64,000 bases of DNA from assembly GCF_900473965.1 (NCBI RefSeq), contig NZ_UCNJ01000012.1:310001-374000 (forward strand), written 5' to 3'. This document shows, one piece after another, positions 35,961 through 51,236 of the stretch. Position numbers and translations under genes: made by a program. How positions within the stretch are numbered: position 1 is the stretch's first letter; each line of letters starts with the position of its first letter. The notes below the pieces were generated by a model. The model worked only from the letters and a program-made list of their open reading frames with translations, had not been told where the DNA came from and made no database searches. This stretch comes from Synechococcus sp. UW179A. Its GTDB lineage: Bacteria > Cyanobacteriota > Cyanobacteriia > PCC-6307 > Cyanobiaceae.

Positions 35961-36212
35961 ATGACAGAAGAACAACTCACAGCTTTTCTGGCTAACGCCA
36001 AAGAAAACGGCAGACTTCAAGAACAGCTCAAAGCAGCGGCCGATACCAAGGCTGTTGCTGCCATTGCTAAACAATCAGGGCTTAATATCTATATTGATGG
36101 TCTTATTATAGTTCAACCAAGACTTTCAGATAACGAGCTGGAAGGTGTTGCTGGTGGACGCGGTTTCTCCTATCTACCACAACAATGTGTGACTGACTAT
36201 TTATGTGGATGA
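35961..36212 (+). CDS. Nif11-leader (prochlorosin-like) peptide precursor
   Basis: An 83-residue protein. Residues 1-66 are a Nif11-type leader (MTEEQLTAFLANAKENGRLQ ... DNELEGVAGG) ending in Gly-Gly. The 17-residue core is RGFSYLPQQCVTDYLCG, with two Cys, one Ser and one Thr. In picocyanobacteria such precursors are substrates of a single promiscuous LanM-type synthetase (ProcM) and exported after Gly-Gly cleavage. It sits behind CACCAG leader copy 2. No synthetase is nearby, so modification is inferred. Confidence 0.8.
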   Translation: MTEEQLTAFLANAKENGRLQEQLKAAADTKAVAAIAKQSGLNIYIDGLIIVQPRLSDNELEGVAGGRGFSYLPQQCVTDYLCG

Positions 36213-37382: not shown

Positions 37383-38206
37383 AGCTATTTCTAAAGTCTC
37401 TGATTACTCCATTTCAACATTCCTCAATCAATCATCATCTCTGTTGCTGATCGAAATCTTAGCTACATACACAATCATCACTCAATTAAAAAGATAAAAT
37501 TGGATTATTAGCATGTTTGTCTGCAAACTCTAGTCCCTAAAAATTCAGACTGAAATAGAAGTTTATAAATATTTCAAATTCAGGCTTTCCATGACGTTGG
37601 ACGAACTTCTGAAAGAATGAAACCATATCCTTCTCTTGTTCTGGCTCATACACCCATGAATAGAGCAGGCACGTAGGTCAAACATGTCCCAGGCAAGAAC
37701 ATGGGTTACATAAGCCTTGACTTTGTTTTAGCAGACGAACTTTCTGAGCGACCCCCAAAAGCTTCTGCCGGCATGCACGGCGCTTGCGCGAGACGAGTCA
37801 CGCACTACTGGGGTAATCAACAACCTTCAGAGAATCTTAGTAATCCAGAGTGAGCAACTCGCATTAGGAATGCTCACTGCTCGGCTACTGATCGCTAGAG
37901 ACCGACGCCGAACCTGCTGATCCAAGGACCACAGCAGCACTACCCTGTGCCTAACCACCAAGCTTGCCATCACACTTGAGGCCGGACTGCTGGATGACTA
38001 GAACTGAAACCTCAGACACTGCATCGATTGGGAACAATCAGGGCGGCTGGATTTGGCAGGTGAGGAAACGGGCGACACGGGGGAAGGGCCTGGGGCTGGA
38101 TATCTCTAGATAACACTGTCTGAGCAGAGTTAGCGCATGACCTGAGACCCACTGCCGCAAGATGATTCAGCCAGATCCCCGTCAGGTCCTACTATGTGGG
38201 AGTAAC
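37383..38206. other. 824-bp non-coding stretch upstream of tRNA-Pro
   Basis: No open frame of convincing composition is present on either strand. AT-rich at the left, it becomes GC-richer toward the tRNA. It may be decayed coding DNA; I see no repeats or RNA gene in it. Confidence 0.5.
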
Positions 38207-38280
38207 GGGGCGTGGCGCAGCTTGGTAGCGCGGGTGCTTTGGGAGCACTAGGTCGCAGGTTCGAATCCTGTCGCCCCGAT
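38207..38280 (+). tRNA. trnP: tRNA-Pro (anticodon TGG)
   Basis: A 74-nt cloverleaf: acceptor CGGGGCG pairs with CGCCCCG, discriminator A. The D arm is GCGCAGCTTGGTAGCGC, the anticodon loop TTTGGGA and the T arm GCAGGTTCGAATCCTGT. It has no encoded CCA. It forms the left border of a phage-satellite-like block, a common integration target, but I found no second copy of its 3' end on the right. Confidence 0.96.
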
Positions 38281-39788: not shown

Positions 39789-40393
39789 AATCATCTGGGC
39801 ACAATCAACCCTGCCCCGTTTGTTCCAGGGTCAAAGACGCTGATTGCAGATTCAACGATCAAGTTGTCCTCTGCCATACCGGCACTGATCTACGCCCAGG
39901 CGATCAGATCACCATCAGCGGGGCGCAATGGGCATTCATTCACCACAACGGTGGGTTCAGTGGTTCAGCCGCAGTCTTCAAGCCACACAGAGAAAGGGAT
40001 TCACATAGGGGTCAACGCCTCCAAACCCCTAATACTGCGCAGGAACTTCTATCCCGCCAAACCAAGCGCTCTCAATGGGCGCACATCCTTGATCAATTCC
40101 ACGATGCCTACGACGAGGCGTGGAACATCCCCGACCTCTACACCTGCACCCCTAATCAATTCCAATCCGCCTGCGCAGCCGTATCAGACGCACAGGCCAA
40201 AGCAGCAGCCCTCCGCCCTCATCTCAGGACCATCTGGAGGGATCACGACGACCTTGCGCAGCTGCATCGCCTACGCGTCGAAGCTCAGCTGAAATCCATC
40301 GCCTACATCGCAGAAGATCTCAGACAGTTTCAACAGAACGAACTCGGTCTCCCTTGCCCCGCGGCTGTTCGAGAGCTGGAGGCAAGCCAATGA
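39785..40393 (+). CDS. Zinc-ribbon (primase-type) protein of the element
   Basis: A 202-residue protein. The N-terminus has CPVCSRVKDADCRFNDQVVL then CHTG, a four-Cys/His arrangement like the CHC2-type zinc ribbon at the front of phage/plasmid primases. No TOPRIM motifs follow, and the rest is helical. It overlaps the ATPase gene (ATGA). I infer a DNA-binding partner of the downstream helicase. Confidence 0.55.
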   Translation: MKSSGHNQPCPVCSRVKDADCRFNDQVVLCHTGTDLRPGDQITISGAQWAFIHHNGGFSGSAAVFKPHRERDSHRGQRLQTPNTAQELLSRQTKRSQWAHILDQFHDAYDEAWNIPDLYTCTPNQFQSACAAVSDAQAKAAALRPHLRTIWRDHDDLAQLHRLRVEAQLKSIAYIAEDLRQFQQNELGLPCPAAVRELEASQ

Positions 40394-41733
40394 CAACCAC
40401 TCCAGATCAGGCAGAACTGGCCAAGGTCTTTGAACTGCCAACAGGGCATAACCAAGACCCGCTCGATAACTGGGAATCGATCATCACCAATCTGGTGAAC
40501 CCTGATCATCCTCACTTCGAAAAAAACATCATCAGACGCCAGATCCGTGCACAGACAGCAGCACAGGAAAACGATCTCCGCGTCTCTCCAGATCAGGTCA
40601 GAGCACGCCTGATCCAGAAGCAACGTGATCTGATCGCTGACACTGATTCCAAAGGCGTTGCTGGCGGAGACGTTGCCAAATTTGCGGAAAAGACCTGGCT
40701 TATCCAAGGACTAATCGCTGAAGGTTGCCTCACTGGAATTGCAGCGTTCGCCAAGGTCGGTAAGACCAAAGCGCTAACCGAGCTGGCGGCTTCTCTCATC
40801 CATCAGCAGTCCTTCATGGGTAACCCTGAATGGATGCCTGCTCCAGGGCCGCACAAGCTCATCCTGTGGTGGACAGACCAGCCTGGTGTTGACTCTGCTC
40901 AATACCTAAAAGCTCGTGGCCTCATGGAGCCCGATGGCACCCTGCACCCGCAGATCATCAAGCTCTACACGCAGGAAGACGGTCTCTGCTGGGATGACCA
41001 GGGCATGGATGAAATCATCCAGATCACAACAGCTGAACCTGACTCGATCCTGCTGACTGACAGCTTCTACGCCAACGTCCAGCCCATCTACGGAAGTGAT
41101 CAAGAGGCGGAATCAGGCGGTGCTCTCATCGATGTTCAGACCTATTGCACCAAACGCACCAAGGCTCACGTCTGCGCTTTCCACTCACCACAGGAGAAAG
41201 ACAAGGTTGGCGTTGAAGCAATGCGTGGTCATGGCTCAGCCAAAGGCGTGGTCTCCTCCACCATCAGCCTGCATTTCCTTGAGAAGAAATCCGCCACAGG
41301 ATCAAACAAATGGGTCAGCGATAAAGAGAACCCCCATCGCCGTCTCGTCTTCGAAGGTCGTGGTCCCTATGTCGACATGCTCGTTCGCCTTGATGGTGCA
41401 GCAGGCACTTGGGAAGTAATCGGCAAGTTCGATCGGGCTCTCGCTGAATTGCAGTCCGACGATCAGAAGAGTGAATCCATCGGCGGCCTAACTGAAGGTC
41501 AACGACAAACACTCGAATGGGTCGGCGCTGCGTCTGAAATCTGGAAGCACCCTCATGGCGTCACGGTGCAACAGGTCGCAGCTTGCAAAGTGCAGCATCT
41601 CAACCGCGAAGCGACTGGCTCGGAGATCGAAACCACACGCAAACAGCTTCGCGCTTGCACCAAAGCAGAGCTGCTTTCACAGACCACAAAGGGCAACACC
41701 CATTACTGGGCATACAAACAGCAAGACGGCTGA
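40390..41733 (+). CDS. RepA/DnaB-like hexameric helicase ATPase
   Basis: A 447-residue RecA-fold ATPase. Its Walker A-like sequence is AAFAKVGKTKAL (~118-129). A strand with acidic end SILLTDSFYANV fits Walker B, and AFHSPQEKD and GVVSSTISLHFLEKK fit later motifs of RSF1010 RepA-type helicases. A C-terminal helical domain (~355-447) could be a winged helix. It is the core replication protein of the satellite-like element, with candidate iterons starting at its stop codon. Confidence 0.7.
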   Translation: MTTTPDQAELAKVFELPTGHNQDPLDNWESIITNLVNPDHPHFEKNIIRRQIRAQTAAQENDLRVSPDQVRARLIQKQRDLIADTDSKGVAGGDVAKFAEKTWLIQGLIAEGCLTGIAAFAKVGKTKALTELAASLIHQQSFMGNPEWMPAPGPHKLILWWTDQPGVDSAQYLKARGLMEPDGTLHPQIIKLYTQEDGLCWDDQGMDEIIQITTAEPDSILLTDSFYANVQPIYGSDQEAESGGALIDVQTYCTKRTKAHVCAFHSPQEKDKVGVEAMRGHGSAKGVVSSTISLHFLEKKSATGSNKWVSDKENPHRRLVFEGRGPYVDMLVRLDGAAGTWEVIGKFDRALAELQSDDQKSESIGGLTEGQRQTLEWVGAASEIWKHPHGVTVQQVAACKVQHLNREATGSEIETTRKQLRACTKAELLSQTTKGNTHYWAYKQQDG

Positions 41734-42068: not shown

Positions 42069-42596
42069 GTGGCTGCATCGATTGAGCAGAGAAAAGAAGC
42101 AGAAATTAAGCGCAATCGTGCTTGGCAATTACATCTGAACGGTGCCCCGCAATTTGCAATCGCTGCCGAGTTGGAGATAACCCAGGCCAGGGTGAGCCAA
42201 TTCATCAAGCAATCAGCCAAGGCGCACCCGATCAATCAGCTGACGCTCGAAGAGCGGATGGCAGTCAGCGAAGAGCGCTGGAATTTGTCTGAGCGGGAAT
42301 TACGCGAGCAGATTGCGGTGCAACGCCAACACGGCCGCACCGTCACTGAAACGGTCACCGACGCCATGGGCCGCACCACGGTGAAGACCACGCACGAGCC
42401 TGGTGTCGATCCAGCTCTGCTCCGTGCGCTGTCAACACATCACGATCGCCGTGCTCGTCAGCTCAACAATCAGCTCAGCCCTGATACCGGTGTCCAGGCG
42501 ATGCAGGTCAACGTCGTGAAGGATTTCATTCAGCAGGGCGTTGGCCAGGGCAAGCTCTCTGCCGAGCAGTGGAATCAGCAGGCAATCGACGTTTGA
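42069..42596 (+). CDS. HTH protein, candidate terminase small subunit
   Basis: A 175-residue protein from GTG 42069. Residues ~15-50 (QLHLNGAPQFAIAAELEITQ ARVSQFIKQ) form a helix-turn-helix of the type opening many phage small terminases. A long, charged coiled region follows (LEERMAVSEERWNLSERELR), with a C-terminal helical end. The same element has a large terminase, which supports a packaging role. It could instead be a plain transcription factor. Confidence 0.5.
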   Translation: MAASIEQRKEAEIKRNRAWQLHLNGAPQFAIAAELEITQARVSQFIKQSAKAHPINQLTLEERMAVSEERWNLSERELREQIAVQRQHGRTVTETVTDAMGRTTVKTTHEPGVDPALLRALSTHHDRRARQLNNQLSPDTGVQAMQVNVVKDFIQQGVGQGKLSAEQWNQQAIDV

Positions 42597-42648
42597 TTGC
42601 TTAATAAGCAACGGGTCCACCAGTTACTGACTGCATTGCTGCACCGCT

Positions 42649-42670
42649 GTGCGCAAGAGTGTGCGCATAC
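42649..42670. repeat. Second pair of tandem GTGCGCA sites
   Basis: GTGCGCAAGAGT is directly followed by GTGCGCATAC, resembling the tandem GTGCGCAAAA sites next to tRNA-Pro (38310-38331). The two pairs bracket the replication/small-terminase module. Confidence 0.45.
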
Positions 42671-42771
42671 CGACCACCAGTGATCCGCTGACTGACTGCT
42701 GTGATGCCCTGCTGATCAGGTGGATTTAATTAAATCGACCAGCCTGCTTTAGAGGTTAGAAGGAACTCCCT

Positions 42772-43083
42772 TTATTTACACTTCCAGCATGTTACCCCCG
42801 GCGCAAAGACGTCAGGACAAGGGACCTGAGCGCAATTAATGTCTGTAGCCAAATTTGTTTGACCAGAGTTGCTGCCAGAGCCAGCTCTGGGAAGCTTCTG
42901 TCCAGGGAGATACCAAACCCCATCCAAAAAGTAAGCCTTCCCATTAGATACTTTGCTAGGAGGTTTTTGGGCAGCAGGCATAATTCTTCTTCTCATTTGG
43001 GCTGAAGAACCGGCAGATGCAAGTCCTCCAATTGCACCAAAAGAAATCATCAAAACAGCCCAGTAAATAGCCCTTTTGTTCAT
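42772..43083 (-). CDS. Secreted small cysteine-containing protein
   Basis: A ~103-residue protein starting MNKRAIYWAVLMISFGAIGG, a Sec signal peptide (cleavage near ASA or SSA). The mature part contains YFLDGVWYLPGQKLPRAGSG and a Cys-rich end (NCAQVPCPDV ... VTCWKCK). It has no recognised family. Its placement in the element suggests an accessory (moron-type) gene. Confidence 0.55.
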   Translation of the reverse strand: MNKRAIYWAVLMISFGAIGGLASAGSSAQMRRRIMPAAQKPPSKVSNGKAYFLDGVWYLPGQKLPRAGSGSNSGQTNLATDINCAQVPCPDVFAPGVTCWKCK

Positions 43084-43210
43084 AGTTTTGCGACGACAGT
43101 TTTCAGCATATAAATGCATTTATTTTTCGCCCAATTTTTTCATTGAATTCTCATCAAGGAACAATGCAAATTTAATTTAATTTTTTTGAAGCTGGCTGAC
43201 ACCATTTGAT

Positions 43211-43288
43211 GGCTGGATGTCCAGCCATGGATTCATCGGCAAAACGCGATTGTGGTTTTAGGGGTGCTGGCGAAGTGGGACGTCCCAC
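43211..43288. repeat. Two GC-rich palindromes
   Basis: GGCTGGATGTCCAGCC (43211-43226) and GTGGGACGTCCCAC (43275-43288, perfect). They are similar in style to the palindrome array at 45.1-45.3 kb. Confidence 0.5.
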
Positions 43289-43319
43289 CTCGGGATTGAC
43301 ACCATTCCGCCGCTGCTGA

Positions 43320-43505
43320 CTACTGCTGATTGATCAGCGCCTGATGCACCGCTTCACGAACGAACCGCGTGCCGTCTTTGCCCATGGCCCTGACTGCCTC
43401 GTCATCGGACTCGTATAGGCGCACACCAATGGGCTTCTTGCTCAGTGGTTCCTGCCCATCCGGCACCTTGTACTGATGCTGTTGCAGGTGTTTAACCGAG
43501 CCCAT
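43320..43505 (-). CDS. Small RHH-like putative repressor
   Basis: A 61-residue protein from ATG 43505 (MGSVKHLQQHQYKVPDGQEP). The part PIGVRLYESDDEAVRAMGKD then GTRFVREAVHQALI has the strand-helix-helix spacing of plasmid/phage ribbon-helix-helix proteins. An 18-bp near-palindrome (43509-43526) lies just before the start, and the same motif recurs upstream of the zincin gene, so this protein may bind it and regulate both genes. Confidence 0.5.
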   Translation of the reverse strand: MGSVKHLQQHQYKVPDGQEPLSKKPIGVRLYESDDEAVRAMGKDGTRFVREAVHQALINQQ

Positions 43506-43508
43506 CTC

Positions 43509-43526
43509 TGACGCGTTCACATGTCA
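43509..43526. promoter_or_regulatory. Near-palindromic operator, copy 1
   Basis: TGACGCGTTCACATGTCA. Compare TGACGCGTTAACGTGTCA at 44839-44856. Each copy is upstream of a minus-strand gene of the element. Confidence 0.5.
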
Positions 43527-43590
43527 GGCACGGTAACGCTTGCGGTCATGGTGGCTAGCGGTAACTTGTGAGCCTGTGAGTAACTTCTCG

Positions 43591-43806
43591 ATGACTGCAG
43601 CGCCTGTTGATCTAGTGAGCGACATGCAGGCGATTGAGGACCATTGGCACGAGGGTCAGTTCTTGATGGCCACGGGGCAGTTCACTGAGGCGGAGTGGAG
43701 CGAGCACGAGGCGATCACGATGAGCGCGTTGATCGTGTTGGGCCTTGATGGGATGAAGCAGCTGGGTAGGCGATGCCTACTTGAGGGAGCGATCGAGCTG
43801 GTCTGA
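43591..43806 (+). CDS. Small hypothetical protein of the element
   Basis: A 71-residue acidic protein (MTAAPVDLVSDMQAIEDHWH; EAEWSEHEAITMSALIVLGL). A clean ATG at 43591 is used in preference to an earlier in-frame start. No family recognised. Confidence 0.5.
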   Translation: MTAAPVDLVSDMQAIEDHWHEGQFLMATGQFTEAEWSEHEAITMSALIVLGLDGMKQLGRRCLLEGAIELV

Positions 43807-43971
43807 TCAGTCGCTCCAGTCGTTGAGGAGGTGTTCGAGCATTCCTGCGATGAAGTCATCAGGGCAGTTGATTGATTGCTGGAGATCTTTCAGCTCCTGT
43901 GAAATTGCTTCAATTACTGGGCTGATTTCAAGGTTGAGCTGATCGTCTGTGGGCTTGAAGGTGTTGTTCAT
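43807..43971 (-). CDS. Small hypothetical protein of the element
   Basis: A 54-residue acidic helical protein (MNNTFKPTDDQLNLEISPVI ... MLEHLLNDWSD). It directly abuts the convergent 71-residue gene, and its composition looks coding. No function recognised. Confidence 0.45.
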   Translation of the reverse strand: MNNTFKPTDDQLNLEISPVIEAISQELKDLQQSINCPDDFIAGMLEHLLNDWSD

Positions 43972-43983
43972 GAGATTGATGGC

Positions 43984-44011
43984 GTAGGGGTGATGAAGCG
44001 TTAACCCCTAC
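43984..44011. repeat. Inverted repeat GTAGGGGT-N12-ACCCCTAC
   Basis: A perfect 8-bp arm at the 3' end of the zincin gene. The same arm pair and spacing recurs at that gene's 5' end (44802-44827), both with GTTRACCCCTACC on the right. Confidence 0.55.
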
Positions 44012-44802
44012 CCCTCAGGAAGGATGAGGGGGATGCGTGCAGCGGGTTTGATGTTCTGCTGCTTGTAGCTGTTGCATGGAAAGCCAGTGATTTCGGAGAT
44101 GCTGGCGATTAGCTGACCGTTGTATGTCTCGGTGCCGTTGTCTTGGATGGTGGGGGTGATTTCTGCCCCGTCGATTGTTGGCACCCAAGTCCAGCGGCGG
44201 CGGTTGTTGATTTGTGCCCCGCTGAGGTCTGAGGGGTTGGGCTGTCGGGTGTCTTCGTGGTGTGCGCGAGCTAGGCGAGAGCGAACTTCGTCGGCGTGTT
44301 CTTTGCGCTCGACGTAGAGGGGCCAGATGCGAGGGGTGATGCCGATGAGGCTGGCGACCCGTTCGCATTCAGCTAGCCAAGTGTGGTTGTGATGGGCTTC
44401 TGTTTCACCTTTGCGGTTGGGGGGGTATTTGATGCCCTGTTGATGGTGTGACTGGTGCATCGACTCGTGGAGCAGGGTGCCAAGAGCAGTGCCGACGCCA
44501 AAGGCTTCAGGGCGGAGACCCCAGGAGTCGAGAGCTTGATTTCGGTTAGCCATGACCCAATCAATTTCACCTTGCTTGGCGAAGTCTTGGCCTGGGAGGG
44601 CTTCATGAAGGGTGATGGCGTTGTTTTTGGGGTTGTAGGAACCGAAGTTGCAGCCAGCGGTGAGGCCCCAAAGGATTGCGCCTGGTGTGAGGGATGAATC
44701 CCAGAAGCGTGAGTTGATTGATTGCCAGGTATCGAAGGACCAACCACCACGGACTGGGAAGAGGATTTCTGCTGCTTGGCGGTAGGCGGTGATTGTCGTC
44801 AT
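44008..44802 (-). CDS. Zincin-type (SprT-like) putative metallopeptidase
   Basis: A 264-residue protein with LGTLLHESMHQSHH, an HExxH zinc motif with more His nearby, and a downstream HHNHTWLAECERVASLIG that could give the third ligand. That arrangement resembles phage SprT-like/zincin proteins. The C-terminal ~90 residues form a separate region with WTWVPTIDGAEITP. It is bracketed by two copies of the same inverted repeat, with an operator and a TATAAT in its 5' region. Substrate unknown. Confidence 0.6.
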   Translation of the reverse strand: MTTITAYRQAAEILFPVRGGWSFDTWQSINSRFWDSSLTPGAILWGLTAGCNFGSYNPKNNAITLHEALPGQDFAKQGEIDWVMANRNQALDSWGLRPEAFGVGTALGTLLHESMHQSHHQQGIKYPPNRKGETEAHHNHTWLAECERVASLIGITPRIWPLYVERKEHADEVRSRLARAHHEDTRQPNPSDLSGAQINNRRRWTWVPTIDGAEITPTIQDNGTETYNGQLIASISEITGFPCNSYKQQNIKPAARIPLILPEG

Positions 44803-44869
44803 AGGGGTTTCGACCTGTTGACCCCTACCATAGCACTCTGACGCGTTAACGTGTCAAGCATGATATAAT
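44802..44869. promoter_or_regulatory. Regulatory region: inverted repeat, operator, -10
   Basis: It contains TAGGGGT-N12-ACCCCTA (44802-44827), the near-palindrome TGACGCGTTAACGTGTCA (44839-44856) and a consensus TATAAT (44864-44869, + strand). It lies between the divergent zincin gene and the 60-residue TM-HTH gene. Confidence 0.5.
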
Positions 44870-44930
44870 AGATATAGCCTATTGAGCGATCCATGGGGTC
44901 CCGTTGGCGTCTTCACTGCATTGACTACTG

Positions 44931-45113
44931 ATGAACACCGCACTTGCCTGGATGGCTGTGCTGGTGACGCTCCCGCTGATCGTTCTGTTCTGGATGACTG
45001 AGAGCCGATCCACCCGCATCCAGCGCCTGCGCCGCCAGGGGCTGACCTGGAAGGTCATTGCTGCCCGCTACGGCTGCAGCGCTACGACAGCACGGAGATG
45101 GGCCAACGCATGA
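44931..45113 (+). CDS. Membrane-anchored HTH miniprotein
   Basis: A 60-residue protein. Residues 1-25 are one membrane helix (MNTALAWMAVLVTLPLIVLF). Residues ~30-58 (IQRLRRQGLTWKVIAARYGC, then SATTARRWANA) are a textbook Hin/IS630-type helix-turn-helix. A DNA-binding motif attached to a single membrane span in so short a protein is unusual. I do not recognise a family. Confidence 0.5.
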   Translation: MNTALAWMAVLVTLPLIVLFWMTESRSTRIQRLRRQGLTWKVIAARYGCSATTARRWANA

Positions 45114-45121
45114 TCTCGCCG

Positions 45122-45332
45122 GGGGTCACCCCTGGTGAAAAGGGAACACGTGTTCCCCTCAGGTGGGCACGTGCCCACTTTTGAAAAGGGAGCCCCGGCT
45201 CCCCTCAGGTAGGCCCCGGAGCACAGCTGTGCTCAGAAGGGAGCACGTGCTCCCCTCAGGTACTCCCCGGCCCACTTTCCGCAACATTGTTAAGTCCCGA
45301 GCACGCCCGTGCTCAGGGGAGCGCCCGCTCCC
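45122..45332. repeat. Array of GC-rich palindromes upstream of large terminase
   Basis: In order: GGGGTCACCCC; GGGAACACGTGTTCCC (45142-45157); GTGGGCACGTGCCCAC (45163-45178); GGGAGC-CCCG-GCTCCC (45188-45203); GAGCACAGCTGTGCTC (45219-45234); GGGAGCACGTGCTCCC (45239-45254); GAGCAC-GCCC-GTGCTC (45299-45314); GGGAGC-GCCC-GCTCCC (45317-45332). Three are followed by CTCAGGT. They lie in a gene-free ~285-bp gap before the terminase gene, so a packaging or replication signal is possible. The spacing and unit variation do not fit CRISPR. Confidence 0.8.
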
Positions 45333-45398
45333 TTTTGCACCGCTGATTGCCGCGTGCTCGCGTCAGGCTGACCATTCCGCAGAATCGGTCTCGTCAGA

Positions 45399-46997
45399 AT
45401 GAACTGTTGCCTCGATCGCAGTTCATTGGCTGATACCTCGCCCCGCACCATCCAGCTCAGTGCATGGCAACGCAAGGTTGCTGGCCTGGTTCAGAGCGTC
45501 GATGAACTCAACACGCTCGTTCTCGCTGGTGGTCGAGGTGGCGGCAAGTCGATCCTGCTGATCTGGCTAATTGGTTACTTCGCCTTGATCAGTGGCGAGT
45601 CACTCAATGCCGTGTTGATCAGGCGTGATCTAGCTGGACTGTCCAAGCTTGAAGACCTGCTGTTTCAGCAGATCCCGACGTTGATGCCAGGCTCGAAGTA
45701 TTTCAAGGCCAAGCGCCAATGGAAGCTCAGTAACGACGGCACGCTCAGGCTGATTCACATGGACGCAGGCGATGCGTTCAACAAGATTCAGGGTGAAGAC
45801 CTGAGCCATATCTTCTGGGATGAACTGGGGCAGGAAGCCGATCCGCAGGTAGTGCTCAGGGCTCGTTCATCCATGCGAACGACTGACCCGACCGTGGTGC
45901 CAAAGTTCATTGCTACGGCCAACCCGCTTGGACCTGGCAGCTGGTGGATCAGGGATTATCTGGTCACCAAGGCGATGCCGAACCGCATCTTCACCTGTGA
46001 GTTCTTTGGTGCTCAGCCTGCGGTCTGGATCAAGTCGACGCTCAGGGATAACCCCTATCTCTCGAACCCCGATCAGTACGAGAAGGAACTGCGGGCCAGT
46101 TGCTTTGGCGATGAATCAAAGATCGCCGCTGAAGTGCTGGGCGAATGGGGTCAGGTCACTGCTGGATTCTTTGGCTCGTGCCTGAGCATTGAGCGATCAA
46201 TGCTGCCCCGTGATTTTCAGATCCCTTGGTATCCCGATAAAACCGGATCGTTTACCGAAAAGACCAAGGCTCATTGGTGCTGGATCGGTGGTGACTGGGG
46301 CACGGCCAGCCCTGCATGCGTCGTGTTGATGTGTCAGATCCAGGAGCCAATGATGGTCGGAGAGCGTCATATCGCCAGAGGTAGTTGGGTATGCGTGGAT
46401 GAGGAATACGTCTGCTCGATTCAGCCAGACGGATCAAAGGAATGGAATAGGGGTGATCGCTCATTAACTGCACCGCAGTTTGTGGAGCGAGTGAAAAAGC
46501 TCTACATGCGGAATGGGTTCACTGATTGGGTGATTCCGCACCGCAGAGTGATTATGGATTCAGCAGTTACTGCACAGCTTGGTTTCGGCGGTCATAGCGA
46601 TCCAGTGACACTGAGCACTGAATTTAAGAAGTACGGATGGCAGGTCACTGGTAGCCCGAAGAGCAGCCGTGCTGTCGGCTGGCAACTGATGAAATCTCTG
46701 TTGTGGCAGGCAGGCAGTGATGAGCCTGGTTTGTTTATCTCAGAGCGGTGCGAAAGCTTGTGGGCGACGTTGCCTTATTGCATCAGTGATGATCGCAATC
46801 CGGAGGATATGGAGAAGGCAGCGCCTGATCACTCTGCTGATGCTGTCAGGTATGTATTGACCGCAGCGAACCAAGGCCAGCACAGCTATCGGCAATCACA
46901 GCGAAGCGGAGCACATCCGCTGATGTGGGGTAAGGAAGAGAAGCCGAGACGATATTCAGGAGGCGTGCGGACGTTTAAGCCAATGCCGATTCGTTGA
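45399..46997 (+). CDS. Phage terminase, large subunit
   Basis: A 532-residue packaging motor/nuclease. The ATPase part has Walker A LAGGRGGGKS (~42-51), Walker B LSHIFWDELG (~135-144) and a coupling motif FIATANPLGPGS. The C-terminal RNase H-like nuclease shows its acidic residues in GGDWGTASPACVVL (Asp ~299), RVIMDSAVTAQLG and DHSADAVRYVL. The protein looks complete and undamaged. No portal, capsid, protease or tail genes lie in the window, so its partner head proteins would have to come from another phage. Confidence 0.9.
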   Translation: MNCCLDRSSLADTSPRTIQLSAWQRKVAGLVQSVDELNTLVLAGGRGGGKSILLIWLIGYFALISGESLNAVLIRRDLAGLSKLEDLLFQQIPTLMPGSKYFKAKRQWKLSNDGTLRLIHMDAGDAFNKIQGEDLSHIFWDELGQEADPQVVLRARSSMRTTDPTVVPKFIATANPLGPGSWWIRDYLVTKAMPNRIFTCEFFGAQPAVWIKSTLRDNPYLSNPDQYEKELRASCFGDESKIAAEVLGEWGQVTAGFFGSCLSIERSMLPRDFQIPWYPDKTGSFTEKTKAHWCWIGGDWGTASPACVVLMCQIQEPMMVGERHIARGSWVCVDEEYVCSIQPDGSKEWNRGDRSLTAPQFVERVKKLYMRNGFTDWVIPHRRVIMDSAVTAQLGFGGHSDPVTLSTEFKKYGWQVTGSPKSSRAVGWQLMKSLLWQAGSDEPGLFISERCESLWATLPYCISDDRNPEDMEKAAPDHSADAVRYVLTAANQGQHSYRQSQRSGAHPLMWGKEEKPRRYSGGVRTFKPMPIR

Positions 46998-47197
46998 GGG
47001 GTTAAAGCAGAGGGCTACCGAAACGGGGGAGTCAGACGGGTGGAAGATCACTCGAATGGGTGATGTGAATCCGATTGATTCCGGAGATGGTGAAGAGGTC
47101 CAGGAGGGATGACCTCCAGCACGAGATCAACGAAAGGAAAAAGGAAGTCCTGGGCATAAGACCCATTAGGCATCTAAGACGATTGCAACCATCAGGC

Positions 47198-48163
47198 TTA
47201 TGCGGTTCGTGATTTCGACTTTTGATCACCACTAAAAACAGCCGCAGTCTGTTGTTGCCTATTCACTTGAAGACTGAAAATATCCGGGCGGTTGTAGTGA
47301 CCAGCTATATCGAGGCTTCGTCGAGAACTTCGCACTTCAGCCAGATCAATATCAGCATAAAGGATACCAACTTCTGAATCCAAGGGGCCAGCAATCATGG
47401 TTCCACCCGGAGCGATGATCGAGCTTTTGCCGGAATTGATCTGCTCATCATCAGTAAAGATTTGCTTGCGGCCTGGAAAAGCGGCAGGAACGTCAGAACC
47501 ACGCATGGAGGTGCAGCAATTAATCACATAGCAACGACCTTCGCGCGCAATGTGTTGCATGCTTGCTTGCCAGCCATCACTGCTATCCCATGTCGGTGCA
47601 ACATAAATTTCAACGCCTTGAGAGTACAGAGCCATGCGAGCGAGCGGCATGTAGTTCTCCCAGCAAATGAGTGCACCAACACGTCCCACAGGTGTGTCAT
47701 TGACACGCAGGCCTTGCCCATCCCCAAACCCCCAAACCATTCTTTCAGGGTTGGTAGGCATTAACTTACGATGAACATTTGCATACGCACCATGACAATC
47801 GATATGCACGTAAGAATTAAAAAGTGTTGTGCGACTCTGGGAATTGTCGATCTCATTGATACCGATCAGGATGTCAACTTGATGATGCTTTGCAAGGGAT
47901 CTCAGCGGATTTAAGTGTTGCCCATCGAGATTGACTGCATTCTCAAGCATCAATGCATGAATCTCAGAAGACAGTCCCATATCCCCACCAGGTCTTAGGC
48001 GCCATATGTAGGTTGGATAACCGGGGATAAAAGCCTCAGGCAAAACAATCAGTTTTGCACCCGCTTGTGCAGCGGCATCGATTAGAGAAACCGCCTTCTC
48101 AATTGTTTCAGCACGATTGCCAAGTACAGGCGGGTATTGAATCAGCGCAACTTTTGAGAGCAT
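47198..48163 (-). CDS. Nitrilase (carbon-nitrogen hydrolase family)
   Basis: A 321-residue enzyme with the nitrilase catalytic triad: Glu in LIVLPEAFIPGYPTYIWRL, Lys in NVHRKLMPTNPERMVWG and Cys in VGALICWENYMPLARMALYS. It hydrolyses nitriles to carboxylic acid and ammonia. The substrate is unknown, but release of ammonium from organic nitrogen is a plausible role in marine Synechococcus. It lies next to the terminase element but has its own minus-strand orientation. Confidence 0.9.
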   Translation of the reverse strand: MLSKVALIQYPPVLGNRAETIEKAVSLIDAAAQAGAKLIVLPEAFIPGYPTYIWRLRPGGDMGLSSEIHALMLENAVNLDGQHLNPLRSLAKHHQVDILIGINEIDNSQSRTTLFNSYVHIDCHGAYANVHRKLMPTNPERMVWGFGDGQGLRVNDTPVGRVGALICWENYMPLARMALYSQGVEIYVAPTWDSSDGWQASMQHIAREGRCYVINCCTSMRGSDVPAAFPGRKQIFTDDEQINSGKSSIIAPGGTMIAGPLDSEVGILYADIDLAEVRSSRRSLDIAGHYNRPDIFSLQVNRQQQTAAVFSGDQKSKSRTA

Positions 48164-48227
48164 TAGATGGCTTTAATTCAATACCTGTAAATTGGAGCCT
48201 GACTAAGCATTGCTCATGAAGCCGTTC

Positions 48228-48584
48228 TTAACGACCGGTGAGAGTTTCTTTATCTTCTGCTGAGATACAGCTGAGTCCTGCCGCCTTCAACTTGTCGCAG
48301 AGGCGCTTGATAAGAAGACCAATGGTCGAGGAACCTTTGTTGAGTTCGAAATCAAAAACTGTTTCTGGCAGGCCCAAGCCAAGAGACCAGACAACGCACT
48401 GCACAGAACGTGGATGGAGATATTCAACTATGTCTGGCCACAGCCTCATACGCGGGTCCTTCACGATCGCTTCGAGGAACTCTCCGGACTTTGCCGTTGA
48501 GCCATGAGGCCAGCTCAGGATCTGGATTGCTGGACGGGGCAGGTGATCCACTGCGGCGGCGGTGCCCGTGACCCGAGCATTCAC
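48228..48584 (-). CDS. Hypothetical protein
   Basis: An open frame of 118 codons. The segment MRLWPDIVEYLHPRSVQCVV then WSLGLGLPETVFDFELNKGS looks like real protein. The first ~27 codons overlap a plausible gene on the other strand (48504-48680), so a later start (for example the Met at ~48452) is possible. No family recognised. Confidence 0.5.
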   Translation of the reverse strand: MNARVTGTAAAVDHLPRPAIQILSWPHGSTAKSGEFLEAIVKDPRMRLWPDIVEYLHPRSVQCVVWSLGLGLPETVFDFELNKGSSTIGLLIKRLCDKLKAAGLSCISAEDKETLTGR

Positions 48585-48680
48585 AACCTGTTCCAGATAG
48601 CTGATGTGGATTCAGGTGTGATCCGCTGGGTGAACGCTGATCTGGTGACGCACATCCTTCCGAGGGAACCAGGGCAATGA
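48504..48680 (+). CDS. Small hypothetical protein
   Basis: A 58-residue protein (MRPAQDLDCWTGQVIHCGGG ... WVNADLVTHILPREPGQ). Its stop is followed within 6 bp by a strong terminator, which supports expression on this strand. It overlaps the 5' part of the opposing frame at 48228-48584, so at most one of the two is complete here. Confidence 0.4.
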   Translation: MRPAQDLDCWTGQVIHCGGGARDPSIHNLFQIADVDSGVIRWVNADLVTHILPREPGQ

Positions 48681-48685
48681 CAAAG

Positions 48686-48707
48686 CCCCGCACTTGGCGG
48701 GGTTTTT
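48686..48707 (+). terminator. Rho-independent terminator
   Basis: CCCCGC-ACTTG-GCGGGG followed by five Ts. An almost identical hairpin is found at 49146-49162. Confidence 0.8.
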
Positions 48708-48772
48708 GCTCTCCTTTACCCTTCGCGGCACAGTCTTCCGAGTAAGCTAAGCCCAGTCAGGCAGGTGGTTCT

Positions 48773-48890
48773 GAGCCATTCACCAGTTGCTCACCAGAAC
48801 TTCGCGGGGTCTACACCAGAGCTGCGTAGTGGGGTTCACCAGAAGGGCTGTGATCTTGAAGGAGTCGAGGGGGCAACACCCCCAACACAA
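48773..48890 (+). promoter_or_regulatory. CACCAG-repeat leader element, copy 3
   Basis: ATTCACCAGTTG, CTCACCAGAAC, CTACACCAGAGCTGCGTAG (stem CTAC/GTAG around CAGAGCTG), TTCACCAGAAG, CTGTGATCTTGAAGGAGTCG and a hairpin GGGGG-CAACA-CCCCC (48869-48883). It precedes the short-leader precursor at 48917, giving the same gene arrangement as copy 1 thirteen kb away. Confidence 0.6.
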
Positions 48891-48916
48891 CTCACACACT
48901 TATCAGCTTTAAAACA

Positions 48917-49105
48917 ATGACTACTTCAATCTTCAATGCTCCCTTGCAAATCAAGGAAGCTATTCCAACCTCCACCCAGCCAGAGCTTGAACCGCTCTTC
49001 GATCAAGAGTTGGAAGCTGCTGCTGGGGGAATGTACCTCGGCAATCTGGATCGCGTCCTGGCACCACTCGATCGCTGTCTCTCACCTCTGGGAAGATGTT
49101 TGTAA
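48917..49105 (+). CDS. Short-leader double-glycine peptide precursor
   Basis: A 62-residue protein: a ~38-residue leader (MTTSIFNAPLQIKEAIPTST ... LFDQELEAAAGG) and a 24-residue tail MYLGNLDRVLAPLDRCLSPL then GRCL. The tail has an internal near-repeat (RVLAPLDRCLSPLGRCL) and two Cys. The leader lacks a Nif11 domain but ends ELEAAAGG, like the precursor at 35479, with which it shares the CACCAG leader. A terminator follows. Confidence 0.65.
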   Translation: MTTSIFNAPLQIKEAIPTSTQPELEPLFDQELEAAAGGMYLGNLDRVLAPLDRCLSPLGRCL

Positions 49106-49217: not shown

Positions 49218-49442
49218 ATGTCAGACGAGCAACTCAAGGCATTCCTTGAAAAGGTCAAAGCAGACACCAGTCTTCAGGAGAGACTGAAGATGGAAGGTGC
49301 TGACCCTGCTGCGATTGCGAAAAATGCTGGGTTTAGGACCTCTGCCGACGAATTGAAAGGAGAGATTTCAGAAGAAGAGCTAAATGAGAGCAACAATTGG
49401 AATGACATTTTGAGAAAATATTATTATATTGCTTGTCAATAG
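49218..49442 (+). CDS. Nif11-leader protein lacking the Gly-Gly site
   Basis: A 74-residue protein. Residues 1-56 are an unmistakable Nif11 leader (MSDEQLKAFLEKVKADTSLQ ... GEISEEEL). The expected EGxAGG is replaced by NESNNWNDILRKYYYIACQ, with a single Cys. It may be a decayed precursor whose 3' end was replaced, or a leader-only protein. It has the family promoter. Confidence 0.65.
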   Translation: MSDEQLKAFLEKVKADTSLQERLKMEGADPAAIAKNAGFRTSADELKGEISEEELNESNNWNDILRKYYYIACQ

Positions 49443-49534
49443 CTTAACTTCCTGCTCGTATTAAGAGCCTGAATTCCATGCGGATGCAGGGGATTTTGAA
49501 TGCATCAATTAATCCCATGAGAACAAAAAAATAC

Positions 49535-49610
49535 CATCCAATGTCTAGTACGATTATGCGTATTAATTATCAGCCAAAGACGCTGCTGCATATCGTTGCT
49601 ATGATTATAG
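49535..49610 (+). promoter_or_regulatory. Conserved precursor promoter block (diverged copy)
   Basis: CAGCCAAAGACGCTGCTGCA, then TCGTTGCTATGAT (TATGAT at 49600-49605). It matches the blocks upstream of the three following precursor genes; the GGCACGATTGAGC part is diverged (AGTACGATTATGC). Confidence 0.5.
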
Positions 49611-49626
49611 ATCACGCTTGATACTA

Positions 49627-49863
49627 ATGTCCCTAGAGCAACTCAAAGCCTTCCTTGAAAAAGTCAAAGGCGATAGCTCCTTACAGGAGAAGCTGAAAGG
49701 CGCAGCTGACCCTGATGCTGTTATTACGATTGCCAAAATAGAAGGTTTTAGTATCTCTGCTGATGACTTGAAGAGCGCTCAATCAGAGGTTTCTGATGCA
49801 GAGCTGGAAGGTACGGCTGGCGGTCTACGTACTCCTCTCTCGGCGCACTGTTGCGTAGGGTGA
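49627..49863 (+). CDS. Nif11-leader (prochlorosin-like) peptide precursor
   Basis: A 78-residue protein: a Nif11 leader (MSLEQLKAFLEKVKGDSSLQ ... DAELEGTAGG) and a 12-residue core LRTPLSAHCCVG with adjacent Cys, one Thr and one Ser, enough for one or two (methyl)lanthionine rings if modified. A CCCCTG/CAGGGG terminator follows at 49959. Confidence 0.8.
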   Translation: MSLEQLKAFLEKVKGDSSLQEKLKGAADPDAVITIAKIEGFSISADDLKSAQSEVSDAELEGTAGGLRTPLSAHCCVG

Positions 49864-49958
49864 GCTGAACTCGGGGATGTGATGGCTGCTACATATACAT
49901 ATCATCAAAGCCCTAGGAACGGTAAAGAACGTAAGGACAACCGAGCCTTACACTAAAC

Positions 49959-49982
49959 CCCCTGCATTGACAGGGGCTTTTT
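49959..49982 (+). terminator. Rho-independent terminator
   Basis: CCCCTG-CATTGA-CAGGGG followed by CTTTTTATTTC. Confidence 0.7.
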
Positions 49983-50029
49983 ATTTCTTCAATAGTCTGG
50001 CTAACCCCACAAATCAGCATCCAATACCT

Positions 50030-50090
50030 GGCACGATTGAGCACATTAAGTATTAACTAAAGACGCTGCAGCGGAACGTTGCTATAACCG
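50030..50090 (+). promoter_or_regulatory. Conserved precursor promoter block
   Basis: GGCACGATTGAGC (50030-50042), TAAGTATTAACTAAAGACGC, then GTTGCTATAACC (TATAAC 50083-50088), 22 bp before the ATG at 50110. It is shared with the copies at 50467-50525 and 50911-50969. Confidence 0.6.
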
Positions 50091-50109
50091 TTAAAGACTC
50101 CTGAAACCT

Positions 50110-50418
50110 ATGTCAGAAGAGCAACTCAAAGCCTTCTTAGAAAAGGTTAAATCCGATACCAGCCTTCAGGAGAAACTCAAAGTCGCTGTGGATGCTGAAG
50201 CTGTTACTGCCATTGCAAAAGAGGCTGGGTTTATGATTTCAGCTGATGATTTGAAGAAGGTTCAAGATGAGGTTACAGAAGAGGAGCTGGAAGGCGCAGC
50301 TGGTGGATTCACGAATTTTACACCCATGACGCCAGGCATGGGGGCACAAGGAACCATTGCCAGGCCTATAGTAGCGAAACCAGTTGACACATCAGTCCTC
50401 AGCCCCTGCAATGGCTGA
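50110..50418 (+). CDS. Nif11-leader peptide precursor with long core
   Basis: A 102-residue protein: a Nif11 leader (MSEEQLKAFLEKVKSDTSLQ ... EEELEGAAGG) and a 36-residue core (FTNFTPMTPGMGAQGTIARP ... SVLSPCNG) rich in Thr/Pro with only one Cys. That allows at most one thioether ring. The long, Cys-poor core is unlike its neighbours. Confidence 0.8.
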   Translation: MSEEQLKAFLEKVKSDTSLQEKLKVAVDAEAVTAIAKEAGFMISADDLKKVQDEVTEEELEGAAGGFTNFTPMTPGMGAQGTIARPIVAKPVDTSVLSPCNG

Positions 50419-50466
50419 TTTCTTAAATAGTCTGACAGTAATCCCATCAATCAGCCTTCAATACTT

Positions 50467-50525
50467 GGCACGATTGAGCGCTGTAAGTATTAGCCAAAGA
50501 CACTTCATGACATTATTGCTATAAC
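50467..50525 (+). promoter_or_regulatory. Conserved precursor promoter block
   Basis: GGCACGATTGAGC (50467-50479), TAAGTATTAGCCAAAGACAC, then ATTGCTATAACCG (TATAAC 50520-50525), 22 bp before the ATG at 50547. Confidence 0.6.
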
Positions 50526-50546
50526 CGTTAAAGACTCCCGATATCC

Positions 50547-50798
50547 ATGTCAGAAGAGCAACTCAAAGCCTTTATAGAAAAGGTCAAAGCTGACACCAGC
50601 CTTCAGGAGAAACTCAAAGCCGCAGCTGATTCAGACGCAGTTCTTGCGATTGCGAAAGAAGCAGGTTTTAGTATTTCTGCTGACGACCTGACTAAGGCTC
50701 AATCAGAGATTTCTGAAGAGGGGCTGGAAGGCGCGGCTGGTGGGGTGCCTTGTCCTGTGTCGGCTTATACCCTACACGGCGGTGGTTGTGCGGCTTGA
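50547..50798 (+). CDS. Nif11-leader (prochlorosin-like) peptide precursor
   Basis: An 83-residue protein: a Nif11 leader (MSEEQLKAFIEKVKADTSLQ ... SEEGLEGAAGG) and a 17-residue core VPCPVSAYTLHGGGCAA with two Cys, one Ser and one Thr. It is a typical prochlorosin-type substrate. Confidence 0.82.
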   Translation: MSEEQLKAFIEKVKADTSLQEKLKAAADSDAVLAIAKEAGFSISADDLTKAQSEISEEGLEGAAGGVPCPVSAYTLHGGGCAA

Positions 50799-50910
50799 AG
50801 TGACTCATATCCTAAAGGTGTAGTGCTAGTTTAATCAAAGCCCCAGCAACCTAGGAGTTTTTTATTGCTTCAATCACTCCAAAAAGACCATCAATCAGCC
50901 TCCAATGCCT

Positions 50911-50969
50911 GGCACGATTGAGCGCAGTAAGTATTAGCCAAAGACGCTGCAGCAGACTGTTGCTATGAC
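50911..50969 (+). promoter_or_regulatory. Conserved precursor promoter block
   Basis: GGCACGATTGAGC (50911-50923), TAAGTATTAGCCAAAGACGC, then GTTGCTATGACTG (TATGAC 50964-50969), 22 bp before the ATG at 50991. Confidence 0.6.
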
Positions 50970-50990
50970 TGCTGAAAAGACCTGCTACTC

Positions 50991-51236
50991 ATGTCAGAAG
51001 AGCAACTCAAAGCCTTTCTCGCCAAAGTGAAAGGTGATTCCAATCTTCAAGACAAGTTAAAAGCAGCTAAGTCACCTGAAGATGTTGTGAGCATCGCTAA
51101 AGAACACGGCTTCGAATTCACTGCTGATAAGATTACTGATCTCAGTGAAGAGGAACTAGAAGGCGTGGCTGGAGGGTGTGGGGGAGGTGCAAGCCATTGT
51201 TGGAATCAAACTGAACATTGTATAAATACTGGCTGA
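50991..51236 (+). CDS. Nif11-leader (prochlorosin-like) peptide precursor
   Basis: An 81-residue protein: a Nif11 leader (MSEEQLKAFLAKVKGDSNLQ ... EEELEGVAGG) and a 19-residue core CGGGASHCWNQTEHCINTG with three Cys, one Ser and two Thr, so up to three thioether rings are possible. It is the last intact member of the array; a relic follows. Confidence 0.82.
   Translation: MSEEQLKAFLAKVKGDSNLQDKLKAAKSPEDVVSIAKEHGFEFTADKITDLSEEELEGVAGGCGGGASHCWNQTEHCINTG

What the first reader, a model, noticed from the sequence alone, without database searches (positions are those of the whole stretch)
45122..45332. Array of seven 14-16-bp GC palindromes immediately before the large terminase
GGGAACACGTGTTCCC, GTGGGCACGTGCCCAC, GAGCACAGCTGTGCTC and GGGAGCACGTGCTCCC are perfect; others have the form GGGAGC-N4-GCTCCC or GAGCAC-N4-GTGCTC; CTCAGGT follows three of them. 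Units swap arms and centres while keeping symmetry, which implies selection for the fold or dyad itself. Candidates: pac/cos-like packaging site, replication origin, cruciform-binding site, or stacked terminators insulating the terminase.
Basis: seen in the sequence. Interest (0 to 1): 0.8.

Follow-up and report, generated by a model that had tools for sequence, protein, structure and literature searches.

The report
Seven-hairpin DNA array before phage terminase
A short non-coding stretch in an incomplete phage-like island of a picocyanobacterium holds seven tiny mirror-image DNA motifs whose two arms change only together; the array is real and locally made, but most relatives of the neighbouring terminase gene do without it, so it is probably not the DNA-packaging site.

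Summary
Confirmed: seven 16-nt palindromes at 45142-45332, each with 6-bp arms and a 4-nt centre, lie between a 60-aa TM+HTH gene and a large-terminase gene. Shuffles give 0.08 where 7 are seen; 400 kb sampled from the same genome never holds more than 2 per 250 bp. Between units the arms change only on both sides: 42 of 42 pairs Watson-Crick, no G-T. Shared flanks show local duplication.

The terminase link is not supported: in six of eight close relatives that keep the gene start, the 500 bp before it hold no cluster. Arrays with other arm sequences occur in AG-673-B04 and in contig G120:C71, so 3 of 11 loci with the island's 88-aa gene have one. Each motif tested is mostly or wholly confined to its array, unlike REP families. 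No unit meets the terminator consensus.

Best reading (0.4): a locally amplified DNA-hairpin repeat in a tolerant slot of an incomplete satellite-like island, symmetry kept by hairpin-templated repair and/or weak selection. Rivals: protein-bound dyads or origin, terminators, packaging site.

The parts
45142..45157 (.). palindrome P1, GGGAAC-ACGT-GTTCCC, flanks AAAA / CTCAGGT
45163..45178 (.). palindrome P2, GTGGGC-ACGT-GCCCAC, flanks CTCAG / TTTT
45188..45203 (.). palindrome P3, GGGAGC-CCCG-GCTCCC, flanks AAAA / CTCAGGT
45219..45234 (.). palindrome P4, GAGCAC-AGCT-GTGCTC
45239..45254 (.). palindrome P5, GGGAGC-ACGT-GCTCCC, flanks AGAA / CTCAGGT
45299..45314 (.). palindrome P6, GAGCAC-GCCC-GTGCTC
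45317..45332 (.). palindrome P7, GGGAGC-GCCC-GCTCCC, flanks CTCAG (from P6) / TTTT
45119..45135 (.). eighth, imperfect hairpin CCGGGGGTCACCCCTGG with one G-T pair, just after the stop of the small gene
43275..43288 (.). lone palindrome GTGGGACGTCCCAC followed by CTCGGG, alike to P2 by eye, in another intergenic gap of the same island
44931..45113 (+). 60-aa protein: hydrophobic helix (by eye) plus HTH (HTH_23), ends just before the array
45426..46997 (+). terminase large subunit; start TTG at 45426 by homology, first ATG in frame at 45399
43540..43806 (+). island marker gene (88-aa ORF, homologous part from 43591) shared with related islands
42069..42596 (+). HTH-like protein, possible small terminase (position and weak HTH matches only)
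40354..41733 (+). AAA_25 ATPase/helicase-like protein of the island
38206..38279 (+). tRNA-Pro at the left end of the island

Best explanation
The array is a locally amplified cluster of short DNA inverted repeats in the variable slot between a conserved 88-aa gene and the terminase gene of an incomplete, tRNA-Pro-linked satellite-like phage island. A 16-nt hairpin unit with its flanks (AAAA-hairpin-CTCAGGT) was duplicated in direct orientation (shown by shared flanks), perhaps also inverted (suggested only). Units then diverged, with arms changing on both sides together (shown). I infer that hairpins formed on single-stranded DNA during replication both promote the duplications and let one arm be copied from the other (template-switch repair), which restores perfect symmetry; weak selection for a cruciform or dyad may add to this. 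The array has no demonstrated role for the terminase.
For: Same flanks around P1, P3 and P5 within a direct repeat of 63 nt in three copies, 62-73% alike. Between units the arms vary at 3 of 6 pairs, always on both sides: 9 two-sided cells, 0 one-sided, 42 of 42 cells Watson-Crick, no G-T. The G120:C71 array behaves alike: 27 of 30 cells paired, 5 two-sided. Each motif tested is mostly or wholly confined to its array: 3 of 5 places in the own genome, 3 of 6 in G346, 2 of 2 in G120. No DNA match at E <= 0.001 in 399 other family genomes, none in phages or plasmids; at E <= 0.1 three of 30 other genus genomes give single 25-37-nt matches. The slot differs in content between related islands. Two islands with arrays look damaged: the G273 integrase has no match on the window's contig, and the AG-673-B04 terminase changes frame and ends at residue 175 in that assembly. 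No cluster in the 500 bp before the terminase in six of eight close relatives.
Against: All seven units keep exactly the same 6-4-6 size, which looks like a size constraint and is not expected from neutral repair. Three of 11 loci with the 88-aa gene hold arrays, while 400 kb of host DNA outside the window holds no set of three same-arm hairpins within 350 bp (the G120 array is recognised by palindrome count, not by that test), which hints at a role in the island. The array lies cleanly between genes. In G120 three stem-base cells are unpaired, one of them by a one-sided change, so perfecting is not complete.
Confidence: 0.4

Rival explanations
1. Cis-acting DNA dyad array: several copies of a 16-bp site, bound as duplex or as extruded hairpins by a protein of the island or its helper phage, serving as a replication origin (iteron-like), partition or control site.
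For: Constant 16-bp size, Watson-Crick symmetry without G-T, a 44-nt gap between P5 and P6 that could be an unwinding region, recurrence of arrays in related islands.
Against: Arms are not one conserved half-site (GGGAAC, GTGGGC, GGGAGC, GAGCAC). Centre spacings of 21, 25, 31, 20, 60 and 18 are not regular, and the gap is not AT-rich (AT 0.35-0.5). Eight of 11 loci with the 88-aa gene have no array. No linkage to the replication module could be shown: neither the AG-673-B04 stretch nor the G120 contig matched the window's AAA_25 or Cys-rich genes.
Confidence: 0.25
2. Stacked bidirectional transcription terminators or RNA hairpins that insulate the terminase gene.
For: GC-rich 6-bp stems with 4-nt loops; TTTT follows P2 and P7 on the + strand and P1 and P3 on the - strand; one of five G120 units has a T-rich tail on one strand; the own genome has a GGGAGC-N4-GCTCCC hairpin beside what looks by eye like a terminator (L001). 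RNA folds are stronger than shuffles, z -5.0 and -4.2.
Against: The terminator scan finds no site in the array. Only four T follow. The AG-673-B04 hairpins and four of five G120 units have no T tract directly after the stem. Absence of G-T pairs in 42 cells argues against selection at the RNA level.
Confidence: 0.2
3. Packaging (pac/cos-like) recognition site of the terminase.
For: Position directly upstream of the large terminase gene; the island also has a possible small terminase.
Against: Terminases 71-93% identical have no palindrome cluster in the 500 bp before the gene (G216 twice, G273, G289, G134, G265). DNA homology with G216 (two copies) and G273 begins only within about 10 nt of the TTG start.
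Confidence: 0.07
4. REP/BIME-type or other dispersed mobile palindromic element.
For: Clustered GC-rich palindromes with asymmetric flanks; two Y1-transposase (RAYT-like) genes in the genome.
Against: Motif mostly confined to the array; no such palindromes in the 1.5-kb flanks of either Y1 transposase.
Confidence: 0.04

Closest known systems
REP / BIME repeats (with RAYT transposases; features recalled)
   Same: Short GC-rich palindromes with asymmetric flanks, clustered, intergenic
   Different: Not dispersed in the genome; no such palindromes beside the Y1 transposases; arms differ within one array
Intrinsic terminator clusters
   Same: GC stem of 6, loop of 4, some TTTT tails, between genes
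   Different: No unit reaches the scan's consensus; one of five G120 units and no AG-673-B04 hairpin has a T tail
Iteron-type origins of phage satellites (recalled: SaPI ori)
   Same: Several short repeats in a non-coding gap of a satellite-like island with its own helicase-like gene
   Different: Palindromes, irregular spacing, no AT-rich centre, absent from most relatives
Tycheposon / VEIME / PICMI marine satellites
   Same: Small integrated islands of marine bacteria that use phage functions; passages of PMC10803314 seen
   Different: This island carries its own large terminase; the words terminase and palindrom- have no hit in the main text of PMC10803314
Phage N4 hairpin promoters (recalled)
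   Same: Short DNA hairpins of 5-7 bp stem with a small loop that extrude from supercoiled DNA
   Different: No N4-type polymerase was looked for; loop of 4 and variable stem sequence

Membership tests
REP/BIME | many dispersed copies in the genome | tested here: not met
   5 places in 3.06 Mb, 3 in the array; best BLAST match outside the array in the own genome E 0.097
REP/BIME | REP copies flank a RAYT gene | tested here: not met
   two Y1_Tnp genes, 1.5-kb flanks without such palindromes
Intrinsic terminator | GC hairpin followed by a T-rich tract | tested here: not met
   0 array units among the 2 sites found in 42500-48500, 5.7 expected by chance; four units do have TTTT on one strand
pac/cos site | conserved next to orthologous terminase genes | tested here: not met
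   6 of 8 close relatives without a cluster in the 500 bp before the gene; the 2 others (AG-673-B04, G061) have palindromes of other sequence
pac/cos site | virion DNA ends map to it | not testable with these tools
   needs sequencing of packaged DNA
Replication origin (iterons) | regularly spaced direct repeats beside an AT-rich region | tested here: not met
   centre spacing 21, 25, 31, 20, 60, 18; AT 0.25-0.5 across the array
Replication origin (iterons) | binding by the cognate Rep protein | not testable with these tools
   needs a binding assay
CRISPR array | identical direct repeats with equal-length spacers | tested here: not met
   repeats differ and spacing is irregular
Known structured RNA | match to an Rfam family | tested here: not met
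   only the two tRNAs in the window; in 42600-45450 one sub-threshold match at 43976-44083 and none in the array at E <= 1
Satellite island (tRNA-integrated, own terminase) | tRNA attachment, integrase, replication gene, packaging gene, no capsid genes | tested here: inconclusive
   tRNA-Pro, AAA_25 protein and terminase present; no right att copy found in the window and no match to the G273 integrase on the window's contig; both present in the relative in G273

The most novel reading that the evidence does not exclude
Arrays of tetraloop DNA hairpins, each island with its own arm sequence but the same architecture, are a functional signal of this satellite family, read as an extruded DNA structure (by shape, not sequence) by an island or helper-phage protein.
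Probability: 0.12. Interest if true: 0.75.

Novelty: new variant of a known kind. Interest (0 to 1): 0.42.

Why it matters
If selection holds the symmetry, this would be a rare case of a DNA signal read by shape, in a little-known satellite-like island family of picocyanobacteria. If repair holds it, the array is a clean natural record of hairpin-templated mutation. The paired arm changes between duplicated units make the two readings testable.

Tried and rejected
Packaging site: rejected as leading idea because most close terminase relatives lack it. My first reading of upstream regions took the wrong side for loci matched on the minus strand; one search repeats it correctly and replaces it. 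REP/RAYT: Y1 transposases found but no such palindromes beside them. Link to the small TM+HTH gene: matched in 32 of 300 family genomes, own included, and in 19 viral contigs; of the 20 genome loci examined only the window and L066 (same DNA as L080) have a long array nearby (L061 has the three G061 palindromes), and none of the 19 viral loci has three same-arm hairpins (three have two; L166 has a mixed cluster of four palindromes). Viral contigs with GGGARCACGTGYTCCC: 18 stretches; one (L104) has a mixed cluster of four, none a matching array. One viral contig with the hairpin plus CTCAGG is a lone hairpin. A conserved hairpin before another terminase type (L036, L046, L047) lies inside an open frame. 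Close relatives of the terminase or of the possible small terminase in viral contigs: none; in genome contigs one, AG-673-B04. Distant phage terminases (365 records, best rows about 25% identity) were not examined for arrays. Rfam: nothing in the array. A host cluster of palindromes in L109 (5369-5503) has unlike arms and lies almost wholly within a 333-aa ORF. L086 gave one same-arm triple (GCCGG), one member of which lies within a small-gene homologue; I take it as chance. PADLOC: no match for five proteins. Literature: eight searches, listings only, and passages of PMC10803314; no listing showed such an array, which is not proof that none is in print.

Full report
What is there. Between the stop of a 60-aa gene (44931-45113) and the start of a terminase large subunit gene lie seven palindromes of exactly 16 nt, 45142-45332. 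Read as hairpins all have six paired bases and a centre of four. Four are perfect through the centre (ACGT three times, AGCT once); three have centres CCCG, GCCC, GCCC. Arms are GGGAGC (three), GAGCAC (two), GGGAAC and GTGGGC. The terminase start is probably TTG at 45426, near which homology with relatives begins, rather than the first ATG at 45399.

More than chance. In the 211 bases of the finding, 7 strict 6-4-6 sites stand against a shuffle mean of 0.08 (maximum 2 in 5000 shuffles). The whole window has 22 such sites; 30 shuffles of it average 6.6, and none puts more than 2 in 250 bp. Twenty stretches of 20 kb from the same genome have 73 sites and never more than 2 in 250 bp. Three or more hairpins with the same 5-base arm within 350 bp occur once in those 464 kb, namely here.

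How the array is built. P1, P3 and P5 share flanks (AAAA or AGAA before, CTCAGGT after) and lie in a 63-nt direct repeat of three copies, 62-73% alike. P4 and P6 share arms and a following AG. So the array grew by local duplication. P2 and P7 have CTCAG before and TTTT after; read on the other strand that is AAAA-unit-CTGAG, one base off the flanks of P1. With 79-81% complementary stretches of 26-28 nt this suggests inverted copies, but palindromic cores give part of that score by themselves. On an alignment of the seven units, 42 of 42 arm cells are Watson-Crick; three of six pairs vary, always on both sides (9 cells), none on one side, none by G-T; 0 of 500 shuffles reach that covariation score. 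The units were picked as palindromes, so full pairing is partly by choice; what carries weight is that units sharing flanks differ in the arms only in pairs, while centres and flanks differ freely. Each unit folds as DNA with -4.7 to -7.8 kcal/mol.

Where it lies. The surroundings are a phage-derived island: tRNA-Pro (38206-38279), ORFs with weak excisionase-like and CopG/Arc-like PHROG matches, a Cys-rich ORF (zinc finger by eye), an AAA_25 protein, a HTH-like protein in the place of a small terminase, an 88-aa marker ORF, and the terminase. In G273 a relative runs from tRNA-Pro to an att copy with an integrase at the far end (weak Phage_integrase match, E 6e-5) and a VapE-type protein. No second att copy is found in the window, and the G273 integrase has four matches in the own genome (best 33% identical over most of its length), none on the window's contig: the window's island looks incomplete. 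No capsid gene was seen among the ten proteins scanned. The slot between the 88-aa ORF and the terminase differs from island to island; in the window it holds a 264-aa ORF matched in no other of 300 family genomes, the 60-aa gene and the array.

Relatives. Terminase relatives at E <= 1e-10 occur in 19 of 300 family genomes, own included, many of them partial or distant. In six the 500 bp before the terminase hold no cluster; of these, G273 has four palindromes further up (-746 to -556) and G265 three scattered stems (-413 to about -70). G061 has three unrelated GC palindromes at -377 to -213. AG-673-B04 has CCCAA-N4-TTGGG three times plus a longer palindrome with the core CCAAGGACTTGG, between the 88-aa ORF and a terminase that changes frame and ends early in that assembly. 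Searching with the 88-aa ORF gave 11 places in 9 of 400 genomes, own included. Three have arrays (window, G346:C10, G120:C71), eight do not within 1.5 kb, nor do the longer stretches that I took of those eight hold three same-arm hairpins. The G120:C71 contig (4.6 kb) has homologues of the 88-aa and 60-aa genes and five palindromes of 24, 24, 20, 14 and 12 nt, the first two with the core CGTGYTCCGGARCACG. Its arms also change in pairs: 27 of 30 cells paired, 5 two-sided, 3 unpaired at the stem base, one of these by a one-sided change. It does not pass the same-arm test because its arms differ. The motifs tested are mostly or wholly confined to their arrays: 3 of 5 places in the own genome for GGGAGC-N4-GCTCCC, 3 of 6 in G346, 2 of 2 in G120.

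What it most likely is. Shown: a local, duplicated array with arm changes in pairs; absent beside most orthologous terminases; recurrent, with other arm sequences, in two related loci. Inferred: hairpins formed during replication drive both duplication and arm correction, in a slot that tolerates inserts; weak selection for the structure is possible. I give this 0.4. The constant 16-nt size and the recurrence speak for a recognised DNA structure (0.25). Terminators (0.2) suffer from the failed consensus scan, the scarcity of T tails in the other arrays (one of five G120 units) and the absence of G-T pairs. A packaging site (0.07) suffers from non-conservation. A REP-type element (0.04) fails on dispersal and on the RAYT flanks. 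On re-checking I softened the inverted-copy claim, noted the G120 T tail and the G273 palindromes, and left the odds as they were.

Limits. G000 is a 35-contig assembly; about 13% of it was sampled for background, and by a looser count (arm 6 or more, gaps under 70) that sample does hold small clusters of three to five unlike or nested palindromes. Families were sampled (300 or 400 genomes); metagenome contigs could not be scanned; distant phage terminases were not examined. The difference between 3 of 11 island loci and none in sampled host DNA is suggestive only. Placing the host among marine-type Synechococcus rests on the named relative and on gene content, not on a record of the window.

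Noticed in passing
window 49218-51236 and 35961-36212: Run of five short Nif11-type leader-peptide-like ORFs (MSEEQLKAFLEKVK...) and one more at 35961; the family name is recalled.
   Followed up: no
window 47014-47140 and 48669-48929: Segments repeated at about 87-94% identity near terminase genes of another type (L046, L047) and in L026/L056; possibly an old element end or dispersed repeat.
   Followed up: partly
G000:C25:249195-249737 (L038, L057): A second, 96% identical fragment (residues 352-532) of the terminase elsewhere in the same genome.
   Followed up: no
window 44931-45113; L061-L079, L149-L167: Tiny hydrophobic-helix plus HTH protein family, matched in 32 of 300 family genomes and 19 viral contigs; function unknown.
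   Followed up: partly
window 44008-44802: 264-aa ORF with a HExxH stretch (TLLHESMHQSHH), matched in no other of 300 family genomes.
   Followed up: partly
window 43209-43338: Second small palindrome cluster in the island (ATGGCTGGATGTCCAGCCAT, GTGGGACGTCCCAC, GCTGATTGATCAGC).
   Followed up: partly
L080 1049-1207: Separate array of five palindromes up to 24 nt in G120:C71; half-sites GTGTTCC and GTGCTCC also occur in the window array (by eye).
   Followed up: yes
L048 against window: Replication-type genes are swapped between otherwise related islands (AAA_25 protein in the window, VapE-like in G273).
   Followed up: partly
L054, about 100-400 bp before the terminase (reverse strand): In G265 the stretch before the terminase looks by eye like a tmRNA gene, so that island may sit at a different site.
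   Followed up: no
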